A DNA stretch of 64,000 bases from Pseudomonas protegens CHA0 (GTDB taxonomy: Bacteria; Pseudomonadota; Gammaproteobacteria; Pseudomonadales; Pseudomonadaceae): positions 187,001-251,000 of the forward strand of contig NC_021237.1 in assembly GCF_000397205.1 (NCBI RefSeq), read 5' to 3'. Below are positions 4,638 to 49,430 of the stretch, piece by piece (the first letter of the stretch is position 1; each line of letters starts with the position of its first letter). The position numbers and the translations under genes are program-made. The notes beneath the pieces were generated by a model. It saw only the letters and a list, made by a program, of their open reading frames with translations. It ran no database searches and was not told the origin of the DNA.

Positions 4638-6635
4638 ATGCGCCTGATCAACCGTTGCATCCTCCTGCTGGGAGCCCTGGTTCTCAGCGCCTGTTCCCAG
4701 CCCGCCGCCGACTTTCTCGCCCCGGCGCAACGGCCGTTGCCCAACACCGAGGCGCCCTGGCCGAAGAACCACGTGCTGGGCATTGCCTACCACGACATCG
4801 AGGATCGCGACCCGGACCAACGGGTGGTGGCGGTGCGCACCGAGCGGATGATCGAGCAACTGGCCTGGTTGCGGGAAAACGGCTACCGGCCCGTGACCGT
4901 GGACCAGATCCTGGCGGCGCGTAACGGCGGCCCCGAACTGCCGGCCAAGGCCATCCTGCTGACCTTCGATGACGGCTATTCGAGCTTCTACACCCGGGTG
5001 CTGCCGGTGCTGCGCAGCTATCACTGGCCTGCGGTGCTGGCGCCGGTGGGTACCTGGATCGACACCCCGGCCGACCAGCCGGTGAACTTCGCCGGCGAGC
5101 TGCGGCCCCGCTCACAGTTCCTGACCTGGGCGCAGGTCCGGGAAATCTCCCGTTCCGGGCTGGTGGAAATCGCCGCCCATACCGACCACAGCCACCTGGG
5201 CATTCTTGCCAACCCTCAGGGCAACCTGCAGCCGGCGGCGGCGACCCGCCGTTTTGACGCCGCCTCCGGGCGCTATGAAAGCGAGGCGGATTTCCAGGCG
5301 CGGATGCGCCAGGACGTGACCGCCATCTCGAACAAGATCCTGGCCGTGGCCGGCTATCGCCCGCGGATCTGGGTCTGGCCCTACGGCACGGCCGACGGCT
5401 CCACCCTGCAAGTGGTGGACAGCCAGGGCTTCAAGCTGGCCCTGACCCTGGACGACGGCCTGGACACACTCGACAACCTGATGAGCAGCCCGCGTTTCCT
5501 GGTGGTCTCGGACCCGGACGGCATCCACTTCTCCAACAGCATTGTCGGCGCCGAGACCGCCGCACCCATGCGCGTGGTGCACGTGGACCTGGACAACGTC
5601 TACGACCCGGATCCCAAGCAGCAGGAGGTCAACCTCGGCAAGCTGGTGCAGCGCATGGCCGACCTGGGGGCCAACACCGTATTCCTCCAGGCCTTCGCCG
5701 ACCCCAAGGGCGACGGCCTGGTGCAGTCGCTGTATTTCCCCAACCGGCACCTGCCGATGCGCGCCGACCTGTTCGACCGGGTCGCCTGGCAGTTGCGCAC
5801 CCGGGCCCACGTCAAGGTCTATGCCTGGATGCCGGTGCTCAGCTTCGCCCTGGACGCCCGGCTGCCCCGGGTCACGCGCTGGGATCCGGCCACCGGCCAG
5901 AGCACCATCGATCCTAAGCAGTACCAGCGGCTGTCGCCCTTCGACCCCACTGTGCGCCGGCAGATCGGCGACCTCTACGAGGACGTGGCGCGCATGACGT
6001 CGGTGGACGGCATTCTGTTCCACGACGACGCCGTGCTCTCGGATTTCGAAGACGCCAGCCCCGGGGCCTTGCGCGCCTATGCGGCCCAGGGCCTGCCGGG
6101 TTCCATGGCCGCCCTGCGCGACGATCCGGCCACCCTGCAGCGCTGGACCCGCTTCAAGAGCCGCTACCTGATCGACTTCACCCATGAGCTGGCCGCCAAG
6201 GTCCGGGCGATTCGCGGGCCGCAGGTGCAGACCGCGCGCAACCTGTTCGCCGAGCCGATCATCAACCCGCAGAGTGAAACCTGGTTCGCCCAGAACCTCG
6301 ATGATTTCCTGGTCAGCTACGACTGGACCGCGCCCATGGCCATGCCGCTGATGGAAGGCCAGAGCCAGCGGCATTCCGGGCCCTGGCTCGAAGCCTTGGT
6401 GGACCAGGTGCGCGCCCGCCCCGGTGCCTTGCAGCGCACGGTGTTCGAGCTGCAGGCCCGGGACTGGGCCCGCAAGCCCGCCAGCGACCTCTCCGCCCAG
6501 CAACTGGCGGACTGGATGGGCCGCCTCAAGCGCCAGGGCGCGACCAATTTCGGCTACTACCCGGACAACTTCCTCGAGAACTCACCGGACCTGAAGACTC
6601 TGCGGCCCGCGCTCTCCAACAAATGGAGCCCTTGA
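4638..6635 (+). CDS. pgaB: PgaB, poly-beta-1,6-GlcNAc N-deacetylase lipoprotein
   Basis: A 665-residue protein. The ATG at 4638 sits 7 bases after AGAAGAG and is preferred to an in-frame GTG at 4632. The lipoprotein signal has lipobox LSAC with Cys19. The N-terminal CE4 polysaccharide deacetylase domain (residues ~45-280) shows the metal/catalytic pair D111-D112 in LLTFDDGYSS and the two histidines H181 and H186 (five apart, as in E. coli PgaB). The C-terminal half (~310-640) is the GHL13 hydrolase-like domain that binds or cleaves PNAG. The enzyme deacetylates a fraction of GlcNAc residues in the periplasm, which is needed for export through PgaA. Confidence 0.95.
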   Translation: MRLINRCILLLGALVLSACSQPAADFLAPAQRPLPNTEAPWPKNHVLGIAYHDIEDRDPDQRVVAVRTERMIEQLAWLRENGYRPVTVDQILAARNGGPELPAKAILLTFDDGYSSFYTRVLPVLRSYHWPAVLAPVGTWIDTPADQPVNFAGELRPRSQFLTWAQVREISRSGLVEIAAHTDHSHLGILANPQGNLQPAAATRRFDAASGRYESEADFQARMRQDVTAISNKILAVAGYRPRIWVWPYGTADGSTLQVVDSQGFKLALTLDDGLDTLDNLMSSPRFLVVSDPDGIHFSNSIVGAETAAPMRVVHVDLDNVYDPDPKQQEVNLGKLVQRMADLGANTVFLQAFADPKGDGLVQSLYFPNRHLPMRADLFDRVAWQLRTRAHVKVYAWMPVLSFALDARLPRVTRWDPATGQSTIDPKQYQRLSPFDPTVRRQIGDLYEDVARMTSVDGILFHDDAVLSDFEDASPGALRAYAAQGLPGSMAALRDDPATLQRWTRFKSRYLIDFTHELAAKVRAIRGPQVQTARNLFAEPIINPQSETWFAQNLDDFLVSYDWTAPMAMPLMEGQSQRHSGPWLEALVDQVRARPGALQRTVFELQARDWARKPASDLSAQQLADWMGRLKRQGATNFGYYPDNFLENSPDLKTLRPALSNKWSP

Positions 6636-9344: not shown

Positions 9345-12300
9345 ATGGACGTTCGCCAACTCGCCTTTCTGGCCCGCCAGCCTTCCGCCACCCTGCAAGC
9401 GCGTGATTCGTTCTGCGGCTTGTCCAAGCGCAGCCTGGCGTTCGTCCTGGCCAACGTGATGTTCTGGCAGCCGCTGGTGGCGATGGCCGACGGCATCGTG
9501 GTCAACGGCAGCGGCACCAGCCTCGGCCAGGCGGGCAATGGCGTGCCCATCGTCAACATTGCCACGCCAAATGGCGGCGGCCTGTCGCACAACAAGTTCA
9601 GCGACTACAACGTCGGCCAGCAGGGGGTGATCCTCAACAACGCCATCAACCGCACCCAGGAAACCCAGCTCGGCGGAATCATCCTCGGCAACCCCAACCT
9701 GGGCGGCCGCGCGGCCAATGTGATCCTCAACGAGGTCAACGGCGGCAGCCCCAGCCAGCTCAAGGGCTACACCGAAGTGGCCGGGCAGTCGGCCCATGTC
9801 ATCGTCGCCAACCCCTATGGCGTGAGCTGCAACGGCTGCGGCTTTATCAACACCCCGAAAGCCACCCTGACCACCGGCAAACCGGTGGTTGAGAACGGTC
9901 AGATCCAGCGTTACCAGGTGGACCAGGGCAGCGTCGCCATCGAGGGTGCGGGCCTCAACGCGAGCAATATCGACCAGTTCGAAATCATCACCCGCAGCGC
10001 CAAGATCAACGCCGAGATCCAGGCCAGGCACCTGGCGGTGATCGCCGGGGCCAACGACGTCGACGCCAAGACCTTGAACGCCACGGCCCGCACCGCCAAC
10101 CCGGCGGATGCACCGCAACTGGCCATCGACTCATCAGCCCTGGGCGGCATGTACGCCGGGGCCATCAAACTGGTGGGCACCGAGGCCGGGGTGGGGGTGA
10201 AGCTCGACGGCAAGCTGATCGCCAGTGGCGGTGATATCCAACTGGATGCCAACGGCCAGTTGCGCATGGCGGAGGCAAGCGCGGAGAAGGGCGCGGTGGC
10301 GATCAAGGCGCAAAGCCTGGAGGCCCAGGGCGCGGTCTACGCCGGCACCGAGCTCAAGGTGCAAACCCAAGACGACCTGAACAACCACAGCACCCTGGCG
10401 GCGGCCAACAGCATCAACCTGGGCAGCGGCGGGCAACTGAACAATCAGGGCATCATCGAAGCCGGGGTCAACCTCGACAACAGCAGCAACCCGAACGGCG
10501 ATGTCACCCTGACGGCGCAAAACCTGAACAACACTGGCAAGAGCGTGGTGGCCAGCCGTGATCTGACGGTCACGACCACCCAGACCCTGGACAACCAGGG
10601 CGGCACCCTGAGTGGGCAGCGCCAGGTAACGGTCAGCGCTGGGACTCTGGATAACAGCCATCAGGGCAAGCTGCTGAGCGCCGAGCGCCTGCAACTCAAT
10701 GCCGATCAGGTGCGCAACGGCCAGGGCGGCCTGATCAAGAGCCAGCAGTCCCTCAATGCCACCCTGGGCCACCTGGGCAACAGCGGCGGCGAGCTGTCGA
10801 GCCAGGGCAGCAGCACCCTGGTACTGGCCGGCATGGACAACCTCACCGGCGTGGTACTGGCGCAGCAGACCCTGACCATCACCGGCAGCGCTGAGCTGGA
10901 CAACCAGGGCGGGCTGCTGTCGGGCTGGCAGGGCCTGACCCTCAACGGCACAGGCTTGAACAACAGCAACAAGGGCACCGTCTCCAGCCTCAAGGGCGGT
11001 GTCGACATCACCCTCAGCGACGCCTTGAACAACAGCCAGGGCGGAGGCCTAGTCAGCCAGCAGGCTCTGGACGTCAAGGCCGCCAGCCTCGACAACAGCC
11101 ACCAGGGGGTGATCTCCAGCGCCGGCGAGCAAAGCCTCAAGCTGCGCGACCTGCTGGACAACAGCCAGGGCGGCTCCATCGACAGCGCCGCGACCCTGAC
11201 CCTGCAGGCCATGACCCTGGGCAACAACGGCGGCACCCTTGACGCCGCGGGTGACCTGACCTTTACCGGCACCGACCTGGACAATGGTACCGGCACTTTC
11301 ACCGGCAAAACCGCCGTCACCCTTAATCTGTTGGGCGCGTTGAACAATACCCACGGCAAGCTGGCCAGCGGCGGCCCGCTGCGCATCGAACGCGCAGGGC
11401 AGATCGACAATCGGGGTGGCCAGATGGCCAGCCAGGGCCTGCTGAGCCTGTTCGCTGCCAGCCTGGACAATCGTAACCGTGGGACCTTGATGGCCAACGA
11501 CCCACTGAGCCTGACCCTGGACGGCGCACTGCAGAACAGCGGTGATGGCTTGATCTACAGCCAGAACGGCGGCCTGCACGTTCAGGCCGGGAGCCTCACC
11601 AATGGCAAGGGCACCCTGCAGAGCCAAGGCGCTCTGAACCTGAGCACCGGCGACATCGACAACCAGAGTGGTCGCATCCTGGCCAGGAACGGTAACCTGA
11701 ACATCGGCGCCGGCCACTTGGATAACCGTGGGGGCGTGCTTTCTAGCGTGCAAGGCGCGATGACCGCCGATCTACGCGGCGTGCTGAAAAACGGCTACGA
11801 CCCGAGCAACAACCGCCAGGGCGGCGTGACCCAGGCCCAGCGCCTGACCCTCAAGGCCCTGGCTGGCATAGACAACGACGGCGGGCGGATTTCCGCGCAA
11901 AGCGGCGATGCGCTGATCACCACCGACGATTTCGATAACCGCAACGGTGGCCTCTACGCCAAGGGCCTTGTCAAAGTTAGCGGCGGCCATTTCGACAACA
12001 GCGGCAACAACGGGCAAATCGCCGGCCAGCAGATTAATTTCGACCTCAGCGGCGCTCTGAATAACCACAAGGGCATCATCGAAAGCGACAGCAGCCTGAC
12101 GATCAAGGCCGCCAGCCTCGACAATCAGACCGGCCAATTGCGCGCCCTGGGAGACGGTGGCGATACACGGCTGGAGCTCGGAGGATTGTTCGACAACCGC
12201 GATGGCTCTCTGGAAACCGCCAACCAAAACCTGGCCTTCGACGCTGGCAGCTTCAACAACCGTGGCGGCAGCGTGCTGCACAGCGGCAACGGCCTGTTCG

Positions 12301-30922: not shown

Positions 30923-30999
30923 TGGCGCACTCGGCGGGATTCGAACCCACGACCCCTGCCTTCGGAGGGCAGTACTCTATCCAGCTGAGCTACGAGTGC
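30923..30999 (-). tRNA. tRNA-Arg (anticodon CCG)
   Basis: The minus strand folds as a complete cloverleaf of 77 bases including an encoded CCA. Acceptor arms GCACTCG/CGAGTGC pair fully. The anticodon loop CTCCGAA between CTGCC and GGCAG gives anticodon CCG, reading CGG codons. The T-loop GGTTCGAATCC is canonical. A terminator follows. tRNA genes are frequent integration sites, but I see no integrase or repeated 3' end nearby. Confidence 0.96.
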
Positions 31000-31187
31000 A
31001 GTGCGGGCGACATCATACCTATGTCGACTCGGGGCGTCCACGCCGGTTTTCATCGGCTGGTGCTTGTCCGTCGCAACCCCCGGAAACCCGGGCCGTAGTG
31101 GCAGTTTTTCCTGCTGAAGCTTCCTCGTACCTGCGCGCAACCTGCAGCCAGAACCGTGCAATCACGGGGCACAGGGAGGTGCAGGAG

Positions 31188-31730
31188 ATGAACTGTTCCA
31201 TGCCGGGCGGTCTGCAAGCGGGCCTGTCGGACCAACTGTTCGAAGCCAGCTGGAGGGCGGTATTGCCCGGTTTGCAGCGCCGCGCCCGGCAGTTGGCGCG
31301 GGGCAACGCCGATGGTGCCCAAGAGTGGCTGGCGGCCACGGCGATCAAGGCGCTGCTGTTCTTTCGCCGCTCGCCGGAGCGGATTCGCGACCCCCAGGGC
31401 TTTCTGTTCCTGGTGCTCGATCATGTGTTTGTCGACAGCTGCCGCCGGCAGGCCCGGGAGCAGCGCCTGTTTGTGGATTTCGCCGGGCTTGAGGATGACC
31501 CGCTGCAGCAGCTGGAGGCCCCGCAGATGTCGGTGCTCGACCAGGTGGAGTTGCTGGAAACCCTGGCCCTGCTCAGTCGACGGGTGGCGCAACTGCCGCC
31601 GAAGAAGCGCCGCCTCTTTGAACTAAAGTTTGTCGACGACCTGCCCTATCCCCACATCGCCGCCGAGCTGGGCATGAACCAGCCCTTGGCGCGCAAGTAT
31701 GTGCAGCTGTTGCGGGCGCAGTTGCGTTGA
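31188..31730 (+). CDS. FecI-like sigma-70 family regulator of the R-body locus
   Basis: A 180-residue protein from ATG 31188, with GGGAGG about 8 bases upstream; longer in-frame extensions pass through the tRNA and are not coding. Region 2 is recognisable in DPQGFLFLVLDHVFVDSCRRQAREQR and region 4 in LPPKKRRLFELKFVDDLPYPHIAAELGMNQPLARKYVQLL. No anti-sigma gene accompanies it; instead the reb genes follow after 119 bases. In P. aeruginosa PA14 a FecI-type factor (FecI2) controls R-body genes in a similar locus, so the same role is likely. Confidence 0.8.
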   Translation: MNCSMPGGLQAGLSDQLFEASWRAVLPGLQRRARQLARGNADGAQEWLAATAIKALLFFRRSPERIRDPQGFLFLVLDHVFVDSCRRQAREQRLFVDFAGLEDDPLQQLEAPQMSVLDQVELLETLALLSRRVAQLPPKKRRLFELKFVDDLPYPHIAAELGMNQPLARKYVQLLRAQLR

Positions 31731-31849
31731 TGCGGCCTGAGGTTTCACAGCCGGCTCGCTCGGGCGTTCCTGTTCAGTGAGCCTGTTTTCGATGCTGTAG
31801 CCGGTGCCGCCGCCTTCTGCGGTGGGCCATTCCATCTAAGGAGAGATGT

Positions 31850-32077
31850 ATGCCCGATCCAATGGTCAACTCGCAGATCACCGATGCCGTCACCCAGACC
31901 AACGTCAAGGTCGTGGCCGAGGCTCCGGCCCAGGCCATCGCCTCGCTGTACCAGGTGGCCAGCCACTCGGCCGGCCTGTCGCTGCAGAACGCGGTCAACA
32001 GCCAGCAGGCGCTCAACCAGATCTCCAATGCGGTGGTGTCCAAGGCCGTGGCGCTGATCATGGCGATTGGCGAGTAG
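31850..32077 (+). CDS. RebB-family R-body structural protein (copy 1)
   Basis: A 75-residue protein from ATG 31850 behind AAGGAGAG. The opening VNSQITDAVTQTNVKVVAEAP is the RebB family signature, followed by an Ala/Ser-rich helix (ASLYQVASHSAGLSLQNAVNSQQALNQISNAV). RebB-type proteins polymerise into R-bodies, coiled ribbons that can extend abruptly when pH falls. Shorter than copies 2 and 3; lacks their C-terminal VDTTAGA segment. Confidence 0.9.
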   Translation: MPDPMVNSQITDAVTQTNVKVVAEAPAQAIASLYQVASHSAGLSLQNAVNSQQALNQISNAVVSKAVALIMAIGE

Positions 32078-32101
32078 GGCTGACCGCCCGGGAGAATCGT
32101 C

Positions 32102-32770
32102 ATGGCCTGGTTCAAGAAGAAAACCCCACCCGCAGCCGCGGCCGATGAAAGCGCCGGCGCGGCGGCCGACCCTGGCGCCGCTGCAGTAGCCGCCGAGCCT
32201 GAGGCACCCTCGGCGATGGCCGGTGACGCCGCCTCGACAGCCAGCGCGCCGGCGCCCGATCCTGCGCCATCGCCTGCAGGCCCGGCGCAGCCCTCGATGA
32301 TGCAGACGATGAACGCGCACCTGCTCAAGCAGGCCGGCACGCCCAGCAGCGACAGCACCGATGCCCTGAACAGCCAGATTGTCCAGGCGGTGCAGTTCAG
32401 CAATGCCCAGACCTTCAGCTATGCCCCGGCGCAGATCGCAGCAGCGCCGGACATGATGATCAGCCAGGCCGCCGGCCTGGTGGCGCAGTCGGCGGCGGGG
32501 TATTTCGACGGGGTCAGCAAGCTGGCCCTGGCGGCCCAGGCGGTGCTGCTCAAGCAGATGACCGAGAACATCGTCAAAGAGAACGTCAAGGGGGCTGCCG
32601 AGGATGCCCTGGGCGCGTTGGTCACCGATCTGCTGGTGGGCGCGGCGGCAGCGGTGGCGGCGGCTGCCGGGGCCATGGAGGCCGACGCGGCCGGCGTGGC
32701 CATCGACAAGATCGACCAGAGCATCGCCAAGTACAGCAGCACCCTGGCCAATCGCACACCGTCCTCCTGA
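32102..32770 (+). CDS. Long RebB-like R-body protein with Ala/Pro-rich N-terminus
   Basis: A 222-residue protein, 24 bases after copy 1. Residues 1-65 are a low-complexity Ala/Pro/Asp linker after MAWFKKK. Residues ~85-160 (LNSQIVQAVQFSNAQTF, QAAGLVAQSAAGYFDGVSKLALAAQAV) repeat the RebB helix pattern. A very Ala-rich helix (GAAAAVAAAAGAMEADAAG) closes the protein. The basic head and extra helix suggest an anchoring or capping subunit of the ribbon. RebB relation inferred by eye. Confidence 0.75.
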   Translation: MAWFKKKTPPAAAADESAGAAADPGAAAVAAEPEAPSAMAGDAASTASAPAPDPAPSPAGPAQPSMMQTMNAHLLKQAGTPSSDSTDALNSQIVQAVQFSNAQTFSYAPAQIAAAPDMMISQAAGLVAQSAAGYFDGVSKLALAAQAVLLKQMTENIVKENVKGAAEDALGALVTDLLVGAAAAVAAAAGAMEADAAGVAIDKIDQSIAKYSSTLANRTPSS

Positions 32771-32911
32771 GCAAGCGCCCCGGGCGCGCCAGGTGCCCGG
32801 GGCCTGCACGGCCAGGAGCATGACCGCGACACAGGCTTTCCCCCTGGCGTTGAAGTTCGACGGACCCGGTGCCCAGCCCTTCAACGTCATTCATTGAGTA
32901 AGGAGCATGCA

Positions 32912-33469
32912 ATGGCGAATGAAGAGCAGACCCCGATGGCGACGATATTCGGCTTTGCCGAGAAGTATCTGAAACGCCCCTTGACCCAGGTCGAGCGCCA
33001 GGTACTGGAGGCATTTGCCCAGGACAAGCCGCTGGACATGTCCAGGGCCGCGCAACAGAGCGTCGATCAGGCGCGGCAGCGGGCCACGGAGCTGATGCAG
33101 TCCGATGGGCTGCGCACCCGGCAGATCATCGATCAACTGGCCGGTTCCGCCGCCGCGGGCAAGGCCGATCCCCAGGCGCGGGAGCTGGTGCTGCGCCAAT
33201 TGCTGGCGGCCGCCGAGTCCGAGGAGCCGCTGTCGGTATCGCCCCCCGGGGCCGGCCTGGTGACGACCGCCGCCGCTGCAGCCGCCGCGGCGGCGCTGGC
33301 GCCGGCACTGTCCCCGGCCAGCTTCCCGGCGGACGATCCGCAGCTCAAGGCAATGATCAGCGCCCTGGTCCAGCAGGAGGTGAAAGCCGCGGTCGAGGCG
33401 CGGATGGCCGGGCTGTCGCAGAAAGTCGAAGACACCCTCCAGCAACTGACCGCCGGCAGTGGGCAATAA
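32912..33469 (+). CDS. R-body locus accessory protein, function unknown
   Basis: A 185-residue protein from ATG 32912 behind TAAGGAG; an upstream ATG at 32894 is in frame but poorly placed. Predicted helical: a head (ATIFGFAEKYLKRPLTQVERQVLEAF), charged helices, one poly-Ala segment (about 118-132) that could cross or lie on a membrane, and a coiled-coil-like tail (MISALVQQEVKAAVEARMAGLSQKVEDTLQQL). It sits among reb genes, so it may be a chaperone or assembly factor. Possibly the counterpart of the small non-Reb genes in other R-body clusters. Confidence 0.7.
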   Translation: MANEEQTPMATIFGFAEKYLKRPLTQVERQVLEAFAQDKPLDMSRAAQQSVDQARQRATELMQSDGLRTRQIIDQLAGSAAAGKADPQARELVLRQLLAAAESEEPLSVSPPGAGLVTTAAAAAAAAALAPALSPASFPADDPQLKAMISALVQQEVKAAVEARMAGLSQKVEDTLQQLTAGSGQ

Positions 33470-33542
33470 GGGCCCCCTGAAATAACCGCAAGGCCGTTCA
33501 AGCCCCGCTTCACAGCATCAGGGCTGCCACGTTCACTCAATG

Positions 33543-33560
33543 ACACGGAATGCTCCGTGT
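33543..33560 (+). repeat. Inverted repeat before RebB copy 2
   Basis: ACACGGA and TCCGTGT flank ATGC, 23 bases before the copy 2 start codon and just upstream of its AGGAAG ribosome site. It can form a 7-bp hairpin at the 5' end of this gene's RBS region, or be a protein site. Confidence 0.5.
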
Positions 33561-33582
33561 GCCTAACAAAGGAAGTTGAGCC

Positions 33583-33897
33583 ATGCCACTTGTAAACGAA
33601 CAAATCACCGATGCCGTCACCCAGACCAACGTCAAGGTCGTCGCCGAAGCGCCGGCCATGGCGATGGGCACCATCTACCAATCCATGGCCCAGGCCACCG
33701 CGATCCTGTTCCAGAACTCGGTCTCGGCGCAGCAGCAGCAAAACACCCTGGCCCAGGCGGCCACCAACCAGGGCGTGATGCAGATCTACAGCGTCGACAC
33801 CACCGCCGGGGCGGCGGCCACCGAAAAAGTCGCCCAGGGCGGGGTCTCCGACAACCTCACCAGCCTGTTGACGGTTCTCAAGTCCTTTCAGAGCTGA
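33583..33897 (+). CDS. RebB-family R-body structural protein (copy 2)
   Basis: A 104-residue protein from ATG 33583, AGGAAG upstream. RebB signature NEQITDAVTQTNVKVVAEAP, then MAMGTIYQSMAQATAILFQNSVSAQQQQ and a C-terminal NQGVMQIYSVDTTAGAAATEKVAQGG. Nearly identical to copy 3, differing at few positions. P. aeruginosa likewise has two similar RebB-type subunits (RebP1, RebP2), which assemble together. Confidence 0.92.
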   Translation: MPLVNEQITDAVTQTNVKVVAEAPAMAMGTIYQSMAQATAILFQNSVSAQQQQNTLAQAATNQGVMQIYSVDTTAGAAATEKVAQGGVSDNLTSLLTVLKSFQS

Positions 33898-33951
33898 TGG
33901 CTGAAAGCCTGATTTTCCGTTGAACCTACCTGCTGAAAAAATGGAGTTTTT

Positions 33952-34266
33952 ATGAGCACAGTCAGTCCGCAAATCACCGATGCCGTCACCCAGACCAACG
34001 TCAAGGTCGTCGCCGAAGCGCCAGCCATGTCGATGGGCACCATCTACCAGTCCATGGGCCAGTCCGTGGCCATCCTGTTCCAGAACTCGGTTTCGGCGCA
34101 GCAGCAGCAAAACACCCTGGCCCAGGCGGCCACCAACCAGGGCGTGATGCAGATCTACAGCGTCGACACCACCGCCGGTGCGTCGGCCACCGAGAAAGTC
34201 GCCCAGGGAGGTGTGGCCGACAACCTCACCAGCCTGTTGACGGTGCTCAAGTCGTTCAGTAGCTGA
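33952..34266 (+). CDS. RebB-family R-body structural protein (copy 3)
   Basis: A 104-residue protein from ATG 33952 behind a weak GGAG (ATGGAGTTTTT). Matches copy 2 along its length with changes at the N-terminus (STVSPQ), around SMGQSVAIL, and at the end (LKSFSS). The gap from copy 2 is only 54 bases. High DNA identity between the two suggests recent duplication or gene conversion. Last gene of the locus; a terminator follows. Confidence 0.92.
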   Translation: MSTVSPQITDAVTQTNVKVVAEAPAMSMGTIYQSMGQSVAILFQNSVSAQQQQNTLAQAATNQGVMQIYSVDTTAGASATEKVAQGGVADNLTSLLTVLKSFSS

Positions 34267-34289
34267 CCGTTCCCCAGGCGCCATGCCAG

Positions 34290-34330
34290 CGCCCCCGCCG
34301 CCTGCCATAGGCTGCGGGGGCGTTGTCTTT
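34290..34330 (+). terminator. Terminator of the R-body locus
   Basis: AGCGCCCCCGC and GCTGCGGGGGCG pair around CGCCTGCCATAG and are followed by TTGTCTTTT. Confidence 0.75.
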
Positions 34331-34646
34331 TGCCCGGCGGCATGGGAGGTTGAAGCGGATTTTTTACCGCTAGGCGCCTTTACGTTCTTTTTTTCGAACA
34401 GCCTATTGTCCTTTACCCCCGTTGACCCTAGGATTCGTTTGAGATTTCAAACGCTCTTGCCTGGGTGCCCAAACGCACGTCTATTCTTGTGTGCGACTTT
34501 TTCGTGCTTTTACCCAGTGAACGATTTTCCTGACGGCAGCCTGGCCACGGGCTGGTGACAGCGCCCCGGCGCTCTCCTCCTGACCTGGCGCCTTTCTACA
34601 ATCACAATTCGCCCCGCGTATGCGCGGTGCTGTTAAGGAAGCCGAC
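34331..34646. promoter_or_regulatory. gabD upstream region with inverted repeat CGTTTGA-N4-TCAAACG
   Basis: About 315 bases without a gene. A perfect 7-bp inverted repeat with a 4-base centre lies at 34436-34453, about 195 bases before gabD, and could be an operator for a gab regulator. Several T-rich tracts follow (34380-34400, 34490-34520). I find no convincing sigma-54 boxes. The gabD ribosome site AAGGA precedes ATG 34647. Confidence 0.45.
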
Positions 34647-36089: not shown

Positions 36090-36266
36090 TCCGGTTTCAA
36101 GCGCCGGGGGCACGAGAGCGCTGTCCCCCTGCGCAGCTTTAAAAAACGCACTTTTCAAGGTGGCCCGGGACCGCTCCGACAGTCGATCATCGCATGCTGT
36201 CGCAGGCGCTTCCCCGCCCCGCAACCCTTGAATCACACCGCTGCCGCAGCGGTGAATGAGGACACT

Positions 36267-48743: not shown

Positions 48744-49430
48744 ATGGACCTGCACCAGTGGCGTGAATGCCTGATGACCGGCCAGTGGTTCAGCCACCTG
48801 CCGGCTTCCTTACAGAATAGTTTGCTCGACAGTGCGCGCCCGCGCCGGCTGACGGCGGGGCAGTGCCTGTTCCGGCGCGGCGATCCGCCCTGCGGGCTGT
48901 ACGCGGTGCTCGAGGGCACGGTGCGGGTCGGAGCTGTCAGCGAGCAGGGCAAGGAGGCCTTGCTGAGCCTGATGGAAGCGCCCCACTGGTTCGGCGAGAT
49001 CTGCCTGTTCGACGGCCAGCCCCGTACCCACGATGCCTACGCCGAGGGCGCCTGCACCCTGCTCCAGGTGCCGCAGGCGAATCTGCTGCAACTACTGGAG
49101 CAGCAGCCGCAATACTGGCGCCAGTTCGCCCTGCTGATGAGCCACAAACTGCGCCTGGCCTTTATCAACCTGGAGCAGTTGAGCCTGATGCCGGCCCCGG
49201 CGCGGGTGGCCAGCCGCCTGCTGGCGATGGCCGCCGGCTACGGTGAAGTGGCCCAGGCCCGCCGCGTGCTGCAACTGCCCCAGGAACAACTGGCGCTGAT
49301 GCTCTCGCTGTCGCGCCAGACCACCAACCAGATCCTCAAGGAGCTGCAGCACCAGGGCATCCTGCGCCTGAGCTATGGCGAGATCGAAATCCTCGACACC
49401 GAGCGCCTGCGCGCCCTGACCTCGCCATAG
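48744..49430 (+). CDS. Crp/Fnr-family transcriptional regulator
   Basis: A 228-residue protein from ATG 48744. The N-terminal cyclic-nucleotide-binding fold (about 15-130) has GQCLFRRGDPPCGLYAVLEG and HWFGEICLFDG. The C-terminal winged helix (about 148-220) has PQEQLALMLSLSRQTTNQILKELQHQG. No FNR-type cysteine cluster; the R-x-x-x-S/T cAMP pocket is not evident, so the ligand is unknown. Divergent from the Mpo1-like gene, with 102 bases between them. Confidence 0.9.
   Translation: MDLHQWRECLMTGQWFSHLPASLQNSLLDSARPRRLTAGQCLFRRGDPPCGLYAVLEGTVRVGAVSEQGKEALLSLMEAPHWFGEICLFDGQPRTHDAYAEGACTLLQVPQANLLQLLEQQPQYWRQFALLMSHKLRLAFINLEQLSLMPAPARVASRLLAMAAGYGEVAQARRVLQLPQEQLALMLSLSRQTTNQILKELQHQGILRLSYGEIEILDTERLRALTSP

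What the first reader, a model, noticed from the sequence alone, without database searches (positions are those of the whole stretch)
31188..34266. R-body locus with its own sigma-like regulator, three short RebB proteins, one long RebB-like protein and a helical accessory protein
R-bodies are pH-triggered extensible protein ribbons, best known from Caedibacter (killing of paramecia) and shown in P. aeruginosa PA14 to aid host colonisation. Here all parts stand in one direction between tRNA-Arg and gabD. The locus encodes a FecI-like regulator without an anti-sigma partner, RebB copies at 31850, 33583 and 33952, a long protein (32102) that fuses an Ala/Pro linker to a RebB-like core, and an undescribed helical protein with a poly-Ala segment (32912). 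The gene set differs from the simplest two-subunit R-body clusters. The long RebB fusion could be a ribbon end or anchor and the accessory protein an assembly factor. That is inference.
Basis: partly seen in the sequence, partly recalled or inferred. Interest (0 to 1): 0.8.

Follow-up and report, generated by a model that had tools for sequence, protein, structure and literature searches.

The report
R-body locus with rewired switch
This is a known kind of gene cluster for making R-bodies (coiled protein ribbons that spring open), but sequence comparison suggests how its genes are switched on together, that this bacterial group has lost a usual co-activator of the switch, and that related clusters carry nearby enzyme-like genes that could be cargo.

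Summary
In detail: six co-directional genes between tRNA-Arg and gabD encode an ECF sigma factor, three PF11747 RebB proteins, a long Reb-like protein and a helical protein. As a system it is known: reb genes of P. protegens Pf-5 are published, and the set corresponds to fecI2, rebD, rapA, HP2.2, rebP1 and rebP2 of the Group 2 / PA14-type reb cluster. The '32912' protein belongs to a family found at the same position in 39 of 40 related loci. Features I found no description of: (1) a promoter signature, TTCACA-N15-CGTT, upstream of rebD and rebP1 here and in nearly all fecI2-bearing relatives read, absent from ten remnant clusters without fecI2 nearby, so most likely the FecI2 promoter; (2) a covarying hairpin at the predicted 5' end of the rebP1P2 mRNA; (3) in most relatives a like promoter also precedes rcgA(-fecI2), implying self-activation, whereas the P. 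protegens-type group of this window lacks rcgA and that site; its fecI2 leader carries an RsmA/E-type GGA hairpin over the ribosome-binding site; (4) some relatives hold enzyme-like genes in or beside the cluster (papain-like; DNase-I-like with its own site), candidate payloads. All is computed; nothing is bench-tested.

The parts
31154..31182 (+). fecI2 leader with two hairpins: CCGTG-CAAT-CACGG (31154-31167) and GCAC-AGGGAG-GTGC (31169-31182); the second contains a perfect match to the published Rsm consensus (A/U)CANGGANG(U/A) at 31171-31180, overlapping the Shine-Dalgarno
   Evidence: consensus quoted in PMC4353343. Motif in 8 of 8 clade leaders read; 5 plus-strand and 2 minus-strand matches in the whole 64 kb window
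31188..31730 (+). fecI2-type ECF sigma factor, 180 aa (HP2.3)
31744..31769 (+). predicted FecI2 promoter of rebD: TTCACA-N15-CGTTC
31850..32077 (+). rebD: short RebB-family protein, 75 aa (group 3 Reb)
32102..32770 (+). rapA: 222 aa, variable Ala/Pro N-terminus plus conserved helical Reb-like core (group S4, HP2.1)
32846..32889 (+). intercistronic inverted repeat GGCGTTGAAG...CTTCAACG(C/T)C between rapA and the 32912 gene; one compensatory pair in L045
   Evidence: no more stable than shuffles, z +0.39
32912..33469 (+). helical/Ala-rich accessory protein, 185 aa, HP2.2-type family
33509..33534 (+). predicted FecI2 promoter of rebP1P2: TTCACA-N15-CGTTC
33543..33560 (+). hairpin near the predicted 5' end of the rebP1P2 mRNA: ACACGGA-ATGC-TCCGTGT
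33583..33897 (+). rebP1: RebB-family structural subunit, 104 aa
33952..34266 (+). rebP2: RebB-family structural subunit, 104 aa
34287..34322 (+). strong G+C hairpin followed by a T-rich stretch after rebP2, likely terminator (not listed by the terminator scan)

Best explanation
A Group 2 / PA14-type R-body cluster. RebP1 and RebP2 polymerise into the ribbon, RapA decorates it, RebD and the HP2.2-type protein help assembly (roles from PA14 work or inferred). The ECF sigma factor FecI2 transcribes two units, rebD-rapA-HP2.2 and rebP1-rebP2, from promoters TTCACA-N15-CGTT; the rebP1P2 mRNA begins with, or very near, a stem-loop that probably protects it. In most relatives the same sigma would also transcribe rcgA(-fecI2), an autocatalytic switch that could explain the rare all-or-none expression reported in PA14. 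In the P. protegens-type clade of this window rcgA and that promoter are gone, so FecI2 is no longer self-activated; FecI2 synthesis is most likely gated at translation by RsmA/RsmE on a hairpin over its ribosome-binding site, that is, by Gac/Rsm. Shown here: gene content, motif and hairpin conservation, absence of rcgA and of its site. Inferred: which protein uses each site, and the feedback behaviour.
For: Promoter: strict TTCAC[AG]-N15-CGTT lies upstream of rebD in 37 of 38 and of rebP1 in 36 of 36 loci that contain that gene (39 loci, L041-L078 and L157; many are close relatives), and of both in the window; 79 sites in 932,842 strand-bases against 1-3 in five first-order simulations. fecI was seen in 38 of the 39 (L077 begins inside rapA; L078 by tblastn). 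Strict sites: 0 in 10 of 10 remnant clusters with no fecI in the 12-14 kb read. Not used to define the motif: two Burkholderia plasmid loci have it at rebD (2 of 2; L189 is unannotated) and as TTCACG-N15-CGTC at rebP (2 of 2). Alphaproteobacteria, with the pattern loosened to [GT]TCAC[AG]-N15-CGT[TC]: rebD 6 of 6, rebP1 5 of 6. Feedback: 24 of 29 rcgA genes have TTCAC[AG]-N15-CGT[TC] 85-115 nt upstream; 0 of 8 protegens-clade fecI genes do. RcgA loss: of 19 genus genomes with three RebB genes, 12 have RcgA at 384-414 bits; 7, the window's own among them, have nothing above 76 bits; the clade lies among RcgA-bearing clusters in a tree. 5' hairpin: 92.3% of cells paired against 16-52% in slid controls, 5 of 7 pairs with changes on both sides, 0 of 500 shuffles reach the covariation score. 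Rsm: perfect consensus in 8 of 8 clade fecI2 leaders, in a hexaloop in the three folded; rebB_1 and rebB_2 fell more than 44- and 93-fold in a P. fluorescens SS101 rsmYZ mutant (PMC4353343, section read). PA14: rcgA and fecI2 both needed for PrebP1, active in 0.26% of cells (PMC8322103, section read).
Against: No transcription start, binding or expression data were available here. PA14 sequences were not held, so the names fecI2, rcgA, rapA, rebD and rebP rest on published descriptions, order and size. The motif is short: 4 exact TTCACA-N15-CGTTC sites in this genome, two of them not at reb genes, and with one mismatch fewer sites (33) than the reversed-pattern control (89); in 12 relatives the count exceeds the control in 4 (three Paraburkholderia, one Lysobacter) and is below it in 8. 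It is convincing only in place. L070 lacks the strict site at rebD; alphaproteobacteria have no strict site at reb genes and fit only the loosened pattern, L079 not even that at rebP1; rcgA of 4 Lysobacter and 1 Azoarcus locus has none. The Eleftheria reb plasmid without annotated sigma has no strict site but one TTCACG-N15-CGTC on the other strand away from the reb genes. Two of the five hairpin measures are not above shuffles (pairs with double change 60 of 500, further pair types 262 of 500), 7 of 24 distinct rows lack the innermost pair, and related sequences inflate such scores. The Rsm motif contains a Shine-Dalgarno, so some matches before start codons are expected. SS101 probably has the RcgA-bearing cluster type (not examined), and its authors suggest indirect Rsm control.
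Confidence: 0.75

Rival explanations
1. TTCACA-N15-CGTT is not a sigma-factor promoter but a binding site for RcgA or another Crp/Fnr-type protein (TCACA resembles half of a CRP site), with some other sigma doing the transcription.
For: PA14 rcgA, called a transcription factor there, is needed for PrebP1 (PMC8322103); the matching genes beside fecI here are Crp/Fnr-like; TCACA is a CRP half-site (recalled).
Against: The site is kept in 8 of 8 clusters of the clade without rcgA and absent in strict form from 10 of 10 remnants without fecI; no conserved partner half-site was seen upstream; fixed 15-base spacing and CGT at -10 fit ECF promoters (recalled). The remnants also lack rcgA, so they do not separate the two by themselves.
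Confidence: 0.1
2. The inverted repeat after the rebP1 -10 element is a DNA operator for a repressor or activator rather than an RNA hairpin.
For: Palindromic; the 5' arm is nearly invariant within Pseudomonas; the A. caulinodans reb promoter has a palindromic RebR site (PMC5527310, passages read).
Against: Arms change together to quite different sequences in Lysobacter, Paraburkholderia and Azoarcus, as expected of a stem rather than of a fixed operator; it is kept in the clade that lacks rcgA.
Confidence: 0.25
3. The cluster is a decaying remnant in this lineage and makes no R-bodies.
For: rcgA is gone; other Pseudomonas at the same site keep only rebP or rebD-rapA-rebP; in one clade member (L076) rapA is not one open frame; a rebB1 deletion in CHA0 gave no insecticidal difference (PMC7784888, passages read).
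Against: Purifying selection, strongest on rebD, rebP1, rebP2 and fecI2; promoters and 5' hairpin kept in 8 of 8 clade loci; reb genes respond to iron limitation in Pf-5 (PMC3377617, passages read) and are up on wheat roots in CHA0 (PMC7784888).
Confidence: 0.08
4. FecI2 in this clade is controlled through its unknown promoter (for example by iron or stationary phase) and the Rsm-like hairpin is only a Shine-Dalgarno that happens to fit.
For: PFL_0183/0184 rise about 2-fold under iron limitation in Pf-5 (PMC3377617); blocks upstream of fecI2 are conserved in the clade.
Against: Perfect 10-base consensus in 8 of 8 leaders, folding into a hexaloop in 3 of 3 tested; strong rsmYZ effect on reb genes in a relative (PMC4353343).
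Confidence: 0.3

Closest known systems
P. aeruginosa PA14 reb cluster (rcgA, fecI2, rebD, rapA, PA14_27675/27660/27650, rebP1, rebP2; Wang et al. 2021, PMC8322103)
   Same: By description: sigma factor, rebD, rapA, rebP1 and rebP2 and a variable stretch between rapA and rebP1
   Different: No rcgA at orthologue level in this genome; one HP2.2-type gene in the middle. PA14 sequences themselves were not compared (not held)
Group 2 reb synteny, HP2.1-HP2.4 (Raymann et al. 2013, PMC3583457)
   Same: HP2.1 = rapA, HP2.2 = 32912, HP2.3 = fecI2 (my assignment from size, order and the text of two papers)
   Different: HP2.4 (cyclic-nucleotide-binding-type regulator, taken as rcgA) is missing
P. protegens Pf-5 PFL_0180/0183/0184 and CHA0 reb genes (PMC3377617, PMC7784888)
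   Different: The passages seen give expression and a mutant phenotype only, no promoter, RNA or regulator analysis
A. caulinodans reb operon with PraR/RebR (PMC5527310)
   Same: R-body genes under a dedicated activator
   Different: 'sigma' has 0 occurrences in that paper; single operon; repressor PraR
Gac/Rsm targets with GGA motifs at the ribosome-binding site (PMC4353343)
   Same: Consensus (A/U)CANGGANG(U/A) over the Shine-Dalgarno of fecI2
   Different: Binding not tested; reb genes were taken there as probably indirect targets

Membership tests
R-body (reb) cluster, RebB family PF11747 | at least two RebB-family subunits above the curated cut-off | tested here: met
   three proteins, 91.8-99.9 bits against cut-off 24
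R-body (reb) cluster, RebB family PF11747 | SDS-insoluble coiled, extendable ribbons | not testable with these tools
   needs electron microscopy
Group 2 / PA14-type reb cluster | sigma factor plus rebD-, rapA- and rebP-type genes in one cluster | tested here: met
   by comparison with related loci, not with PA14 itself
Group 2 / PA14-type reb cluster | cyclic-nucleotide-binding-type regulator RcgA/HP2.4 (described as frequent or strongly conserved, not as universal) | tested here: not met
   best own-genome match 73.2 bits, taken as a paralogue; RcgA of 12 related genomes scores 384-414
Group 2 / PA14-type reb cluster | HP2.2-type protein upstream of rebP1 | tested here: met
   linked family of 45 ORFs covering 39 of 40 loci plus the window; identity with Raymann's HP2.2 inferred from position and size
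FecI-type iron-signalling sigma systems | FecR-type anti-sigma factor and TonB receptor next to the sigma gene | tested here: not met
   neighbouring ORFs have no such Pfam match; FecI equivalog score 39.5 against cut-off 260
Gac/Rsm-controlled mRNA (fecI2 leader) | ANGGAN hexaloop over the Shine-Dalgarno | tested here: met
Gac/Rsm-controlled mRNA (fecI2 leader) | binding by RsmA/RsmE and derepression in rsm mutants | not testable with these tools
   needs gel shift and reporter
Rfam RNA families | match to any described RNA family at the rebP1 leader hairpin | tested here: not met
   only tRNA and gabT in the window at gathering score; six weak matches below gathering in 31700-34600, none on 33509-33582

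The most novel reading that the evidence does not exclude
TTCAC[AG]-N15-CGT[TC] is the common promoter of an R-body sigma regulon in alpha-, beta- and gammaproteobacteria, usually an autocatalytic FecI2/RcgA switch, and dedicated R-body payloads sit inside that regulon: a papain-like (YaeF/C92-type) protein between rapA and the HP2.2-type gene in P. fluorescens/chlororaphis-type clusters, an unnamed 730-residue family in the same slot in some Lysobacter, P. mangiferae, P. indica and Azoarcus, and a DNase-I-like (CdtB-family-like) protein with its own site beside rcgA in two Paraburkholderia. The window's clade then carries a payload-free, open-loop version.
Probability: 0.35. Interest if true: 0.78.

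Novelty: new variant of a known kind. Interest (0 to 1): 0.52.

Why it matters
What switches R-bodies on, why only rare cells make them, and which toxin they release are open. A shared promoter signature makes the first testable by 5'-end mapping and gene removal, offers a feedback explanation for rare all-or-none expression with a natural control (a clade that lost the loop), and points to concrete genes to test as payload.

Tried and rejected
RebB in phages: no tblastn match for RebP1 or RapA in 50,697 phage records; reb plasmids exist (16 of 72,556 records, all predicted non-mobilizable). A phage-cargo reading was dropped.

A 25-codon ORF between rapA and the 32912 gene in the window is not conserved in the clade and was dropped. 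The intercistronic hairpin there is conserved in sequence but no more stable than shuffles, so I claim nothing for it beyond one compensatory pair.

Relocated rcgA: the best own-genome match (G000:C1:235744-236418, window 48744-49418) scores 73.2 bits. Similar matches (75.7-78.5 bits) lie about 15-19 kb from reb in six further genomes where both share a contig: four with RcgA (G236, G238, G263, G310... of which all four also have the 400-bit RcgA), two without (G325, G354), and in the remnant-bearing G047 as well; taken as a paralogue.

Other FecI2 targets in this genome: the two remaining exact sites lie within overlapping ORFs (L109) or about 18 nt before a start codon (L110) and look like chance. 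Profiles of the papain-like and 730-residue slot families find nothing in this genome (the tool warns that an empty answer alone shows nothing).

Solved structures: no match for Reb (E <= 0.01) or RapA (E <= 0.1) profiles, none convincing for the papain-like family (best E 0.17). AlphaFold of RapA: pLDDT 60.5, pTM 0.30, no regular structure in residues 1-65, then helices 66-78, 87-106, 116-158, 162-216; too poor for a fold search, none was run. No model of the 32912 protein was obtained.

Tree: 36 rows (window, L041-L075); L076-L078 and L157 were not put in. The RcgA-less clade lies among RcgA-bearing clusters; support printed for its own monophyly was low (38), and values after rerooting are approximate. 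In one search the L052 row of the FecI alignment was out of frame and is ignored. One search stopped on a script error and was rerun. In one search no Crp-like ORF was found in L060, L077, L078 and L079-L083 besides the protegens clade; L077 is cut off, L078 does hold rcgA in two pieces with N runs, the alphaproteobacteria may be too distant for the queries used (Ruegeria has an annotated Crp/Fnr gene beside its sigma gene), and L060 has none found.

Full report
OBSERVATION. The six ORFs, their order, direction and the flanking tRNA-Arg and gabD are as described. Three proteins are RebB (PF11747) far above cut-off; the 180-aa protein is an ECF sigma factor; the 222- and 185-aa proteins match no Pfam family above cut-off. 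The genome (6,867,980 bases, one contig) has no other PF11747 match. By recall this length is that of P. protegens CHA0.

WHAT IS KNOWN. In Pf-5, PFL_0180, 0183 and 0184 are named as predicted R-body genes, and PFL_0183/0184 rise under iron limitation (PMC3377617, passages seen). In CHA0 reb genes are up on wheat roots and down in insects, and a rebB1 deletion had no insecticidal effect (PMC7784888, passages seen). In PA14 the cluster with rcgA, fecI2, rebD, rapA, rebP1 and rebP2 makes R-bodies; rcgA and fecI2 are both needed for PrebP1, which fires in 0.26% of cells; RapA co-purifies and co-localises with RebP1 (PMC8322103; sections 6-9 and 13 read). Raymann et al. describe Group 2 synteny with HP2.1-HP2.4 (PMC3583457, passages and section 11 read). 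Dorr et al. 2026 place PA14 RapA in group S4, with an extended Pro-rich N-terminus (PMC13430693, results and first of two parts of the discussion read). On this basis 31850 is rebD (group 3), 32102 rapA (S4), 33583/33952 rebP1/rebP2 (group 2) and 31188 fecI2, and I call the Crp/Fnr-like gene beside fecI in relatives rcgA. PA14 sequences were not held, so these names rest on description, order and size.

THE 32912 PROTEIN. ORFs of 90 aa or more between rapA and rebP1 of 40 related loci were compared all against all: one linked family of 45 ORFs (some are overlapping or spurious frames) contains the window protein and members from 39 of the 40 loci (not L051), alphaproteobacteria included. Links are by chaining: the window protein itself matches 14 members directly, down to 16.7 bits. 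A database search with the family found 38 proteins, none with a Pfam domain; those that carry a name are mostly from P. protegens and near relatives; only the 8000 candidates sharing most words were scored. It fits HP2.2. The window RapA core has NSQIVQAVQFSN against NEQITDAVTQTN of RebP1, but the profile comparison is weak.

DISTRIBUTION AND SITE. 29 of 398 genomes drawn from the genus have RebB matches: 19 with three, 5 with two, 5 with one. All 11 clusters fetched with wider flanks have gabD beside them, as do the fluorescens-, chlororaphis- and protegens-type named loci long enough to show it; P. indica and P. mangiferae loci do not. Of 19 genus gabD loci scanned (the best per genome), 13 reb-free ones have tRNA-Arg 0.26-0.44 kb before gabD, one with a lone rebP (L132) has it at 0.74 kb, and 5 show none in the stretch, one of them the window's own, where the cluster pushes it out of range. 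Ten clusters are reduced to rebP alone or rebD-rapA-rebP with no fecI or rcgA in the 12-14 kb read; the second RebB contig of G079 was not read.

PROMOTER. Aligning upstream regions showed TTCACA, 15 bases, CGTTC before both rebD and rebP1. Strict scanning (TTCAC[AG]-N15-CGTT) of 39 loci gave 79 sites: 37 at rebD (of 38 loci with rebD), 36 at rebP1 (of 36 with rebP1), 4 upstream of rcgA standing apart from fecI2, and 2 upstream of a divergent gene next to rcgA in Paraburkholderia. The split is my reading of the listed positions; in L051 the rebD start was not called cleanly and the site at 5302 is counted as rebD's. The loci are related, many closely, so these are not independent. First-order simulations give 1-3 sites. 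Ten fecI-less remnants have no strict site; three looser matches there lie away from reb. Genome-wide the motif is not enriched over its reversed control in this genome nor in 8 of 12 relatives, so it is informative only in place. In alphaproteobacteria the strict form is missing at reb; after seeing Ruegeria I loosened it and found CGTC at -10: rebD 6 of 6, rebP1 5 of 6, with six further sites in the same six loci. Two Burkholderia plasmids have the strict form at rebD and CGTC at rebP; each also has a strict minus-strand site at or just inside the called start of its rcgA.

FEEDBACK AND ITS LOSS. 24 of 29 rcgA genes have TTCAC[AG]-N15-CGT[TC] 85-115 nt upstream, taking a 238-aa RcgA to set the start; in the fluorescens/chlororaphis type this is the rcgA-fecI2 unit, with CGTC at -10. 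Some alphaproteobacterial sites lie near fecI (L079, L082, L083), but starts there are uncertain. In the P. protegens-type clade 0 of 8 fecI2 genes have such a site within 700 nt; 8 of 8 loci lack a Crp-like ORF beside fecI (for the seven relatives, and for the window) and 7 of 7 clade genomes searched lack an RcgA orthologue. The clade lies among RcgA-bearing clusters, so loss is the simpler reading. Prediction: this clade runs FecI2 open-loop.

FECI2 LEADER. The last 40 nt before fecI2 are highly conserved in 8 of 8 clade loci and in the window fold into CCGTG(CAAU)CACGG and GCAC(AGGGAG)GUGC; shorter pieces with the second hairpin have z -2.47 (window), -2.04 (L041) and -2.70 (L045). The second is a perfect (A/U)CANGGANG(U/A) site over the Shine-Dalgarno. 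Of 9 RcgA-bearing relatives, 8 have CANGGA near the presumed fecI start and 0 the perfect consensus; two folded pieces of theirs show no such hairpin (z -0.38 and +0.62). In P. fluorescens SS101, rebB_1 and rebB_2 fell more than 44- and 93-fold in the rsmYZ mutant (PMC4353343, section 10 read). I infer Gac/Rsm acts through FecI2.

5' HAIRPIN OF rebP1P2. Beginning 8 nt after CGTTC in the window, a stem of mostly 6-7 bp with a loop of 4-6 nt is found from Pseudomonas to Lysobacter, Paraburkholderia and Azoarcus with changed arms; Dyella and two Paraburkholderia have weaker or interrupted stems. On 27 sequences (24 distinct), 92.3% of cells pair against 16-52% in slid controls, 5 of 7 pairs have double changes, covariation 0.450 against 0.242 shuffled (0 of 500); but the number of pairs with double changes (60 of 500) and of pair types (262 of 500) is not above shuffles. 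The 27 were taken from 37 available; the ten left out have stems like rows already in. Alphaproteobacterial leaders were not examined. No Rfam match lies there. Its place at the predicted 5' end suggests protection from decay; that is inference.

CANDIDATE PAYLOADS IN RELATIVES. Between rapA and the HP2.2-type gene, 17 loci of the fluorescens/chlororaphis type hold a protein of about 213-217 aa with a weak YaeF / permuted papain-like match (NCBIfam 2.9e-4, Pfam C92 0.07, both below cut-off) and invariant H and C residues. Three of four Lysobacter loci, P. mangiferae, P. indica (L052) and an Azoarcus MAG hold a family of about 730 aa with no convincing Pfam match. In two of three Paraburkholderia a 231-aa Exo_endo_phos protein (1.9e-12 and 2.6e-12; CdtB-family NCBIfam 2.2e-6 for the one tested, below cut-off; solved CdtB chains 4.3e-6 for the same one) has its own strict site. 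The slot is empty in the window clade, but also in an RcgA-bearing relative (L157) and in the Dyella and Paraburkholderia loci, so emptiness is not special to this clade. That any of these is R-body cargo is a hypothesis.

LITERATURE LIMITS. I found no description of the promoter motif, the hairpins or the rcgA loss in the searches (listings), or in the PA14 paper's text ('motif', 'consensus', 'hairpin', 'palindrom': 0 occurrences; 'protegens' 0). Only open-licence PMC papers were searchable, and figures and supplements were not seen, so Fig. 1b of the PA14 paper may already show a cluster without rcgA.

VERDICT. The cluster is known; its regulatory anatomy, the missing feedback in this clade and the payload leads are the useful part.

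Noticed in passing
L069 9429 and 9524-10219; L072 9263 and 9355-10050: Paraburkholderia: divergent from rcgA, a 231-aa DNase-I-like (Exo_endo_phos, CdtB-family-like) gene preceded by its own TTCACA-N15-CGTT site.
   Followed up: partly
L047 6557-7210 and 16 further fluorescens/chlororaphis-type loci: A papain-like (YaeF/C92-type, weak match) protein of about 213-217 aa encoded inside the reb cluster between rapA and the HP2.2-type gene.
   Followed up: partly
L068 6445-8643, L067 7002-9179, L071, L073, L074, L052: A family of about 730 aa without convincing Pfam match in the same slot; motifs such as HxH and HCGEG remind of metal-dependent deaminases (impression only).
   Followed up: partly
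L147-L156 (ten Pseudomonas genomes): Reduced reb clusters beside gabD: rebP alone or rebD-rapA-rebP, without fecI, rcgA or the strict promoter motif in the stretch read; how they are expressed is unknown.
   Followed up: partly
L076 around 6001-6469; L157 4830-5469: rapA is not one open frame in P. protegens 14B2 (L076) and in L157 (two overlapping pieces); a sequencing error or a real break, not pursued and not joined.
   Followed up: no
window 30999-31150: Conserved blocks upstream of fecI2 in the P. protegens-type clade (around GGAAACCCGGG and GGCAGTTTTTCC) that may hold its unidentified promoter.
   Followed up: no
window 33583-34266: rebP1 and rebP2 are 88.8% identical in DNA and mostly show lower dS than fecI2 in the same comparisons, as if homogenised or codon-constrained.
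   Followed up: partly
window 48744-49418: A Crp/Fnr-family gene (taken as a paralogue of RcgA, 73 bits); similar matches lie 15-19 kb from reb in other Pseudomonas with and without rcgA.
   Followed up: partly
window 36159-36220: gabT RNA motif (RF01738, 56.4 bits) between gabD and the following aminotransferase gene.
   Followed up: no
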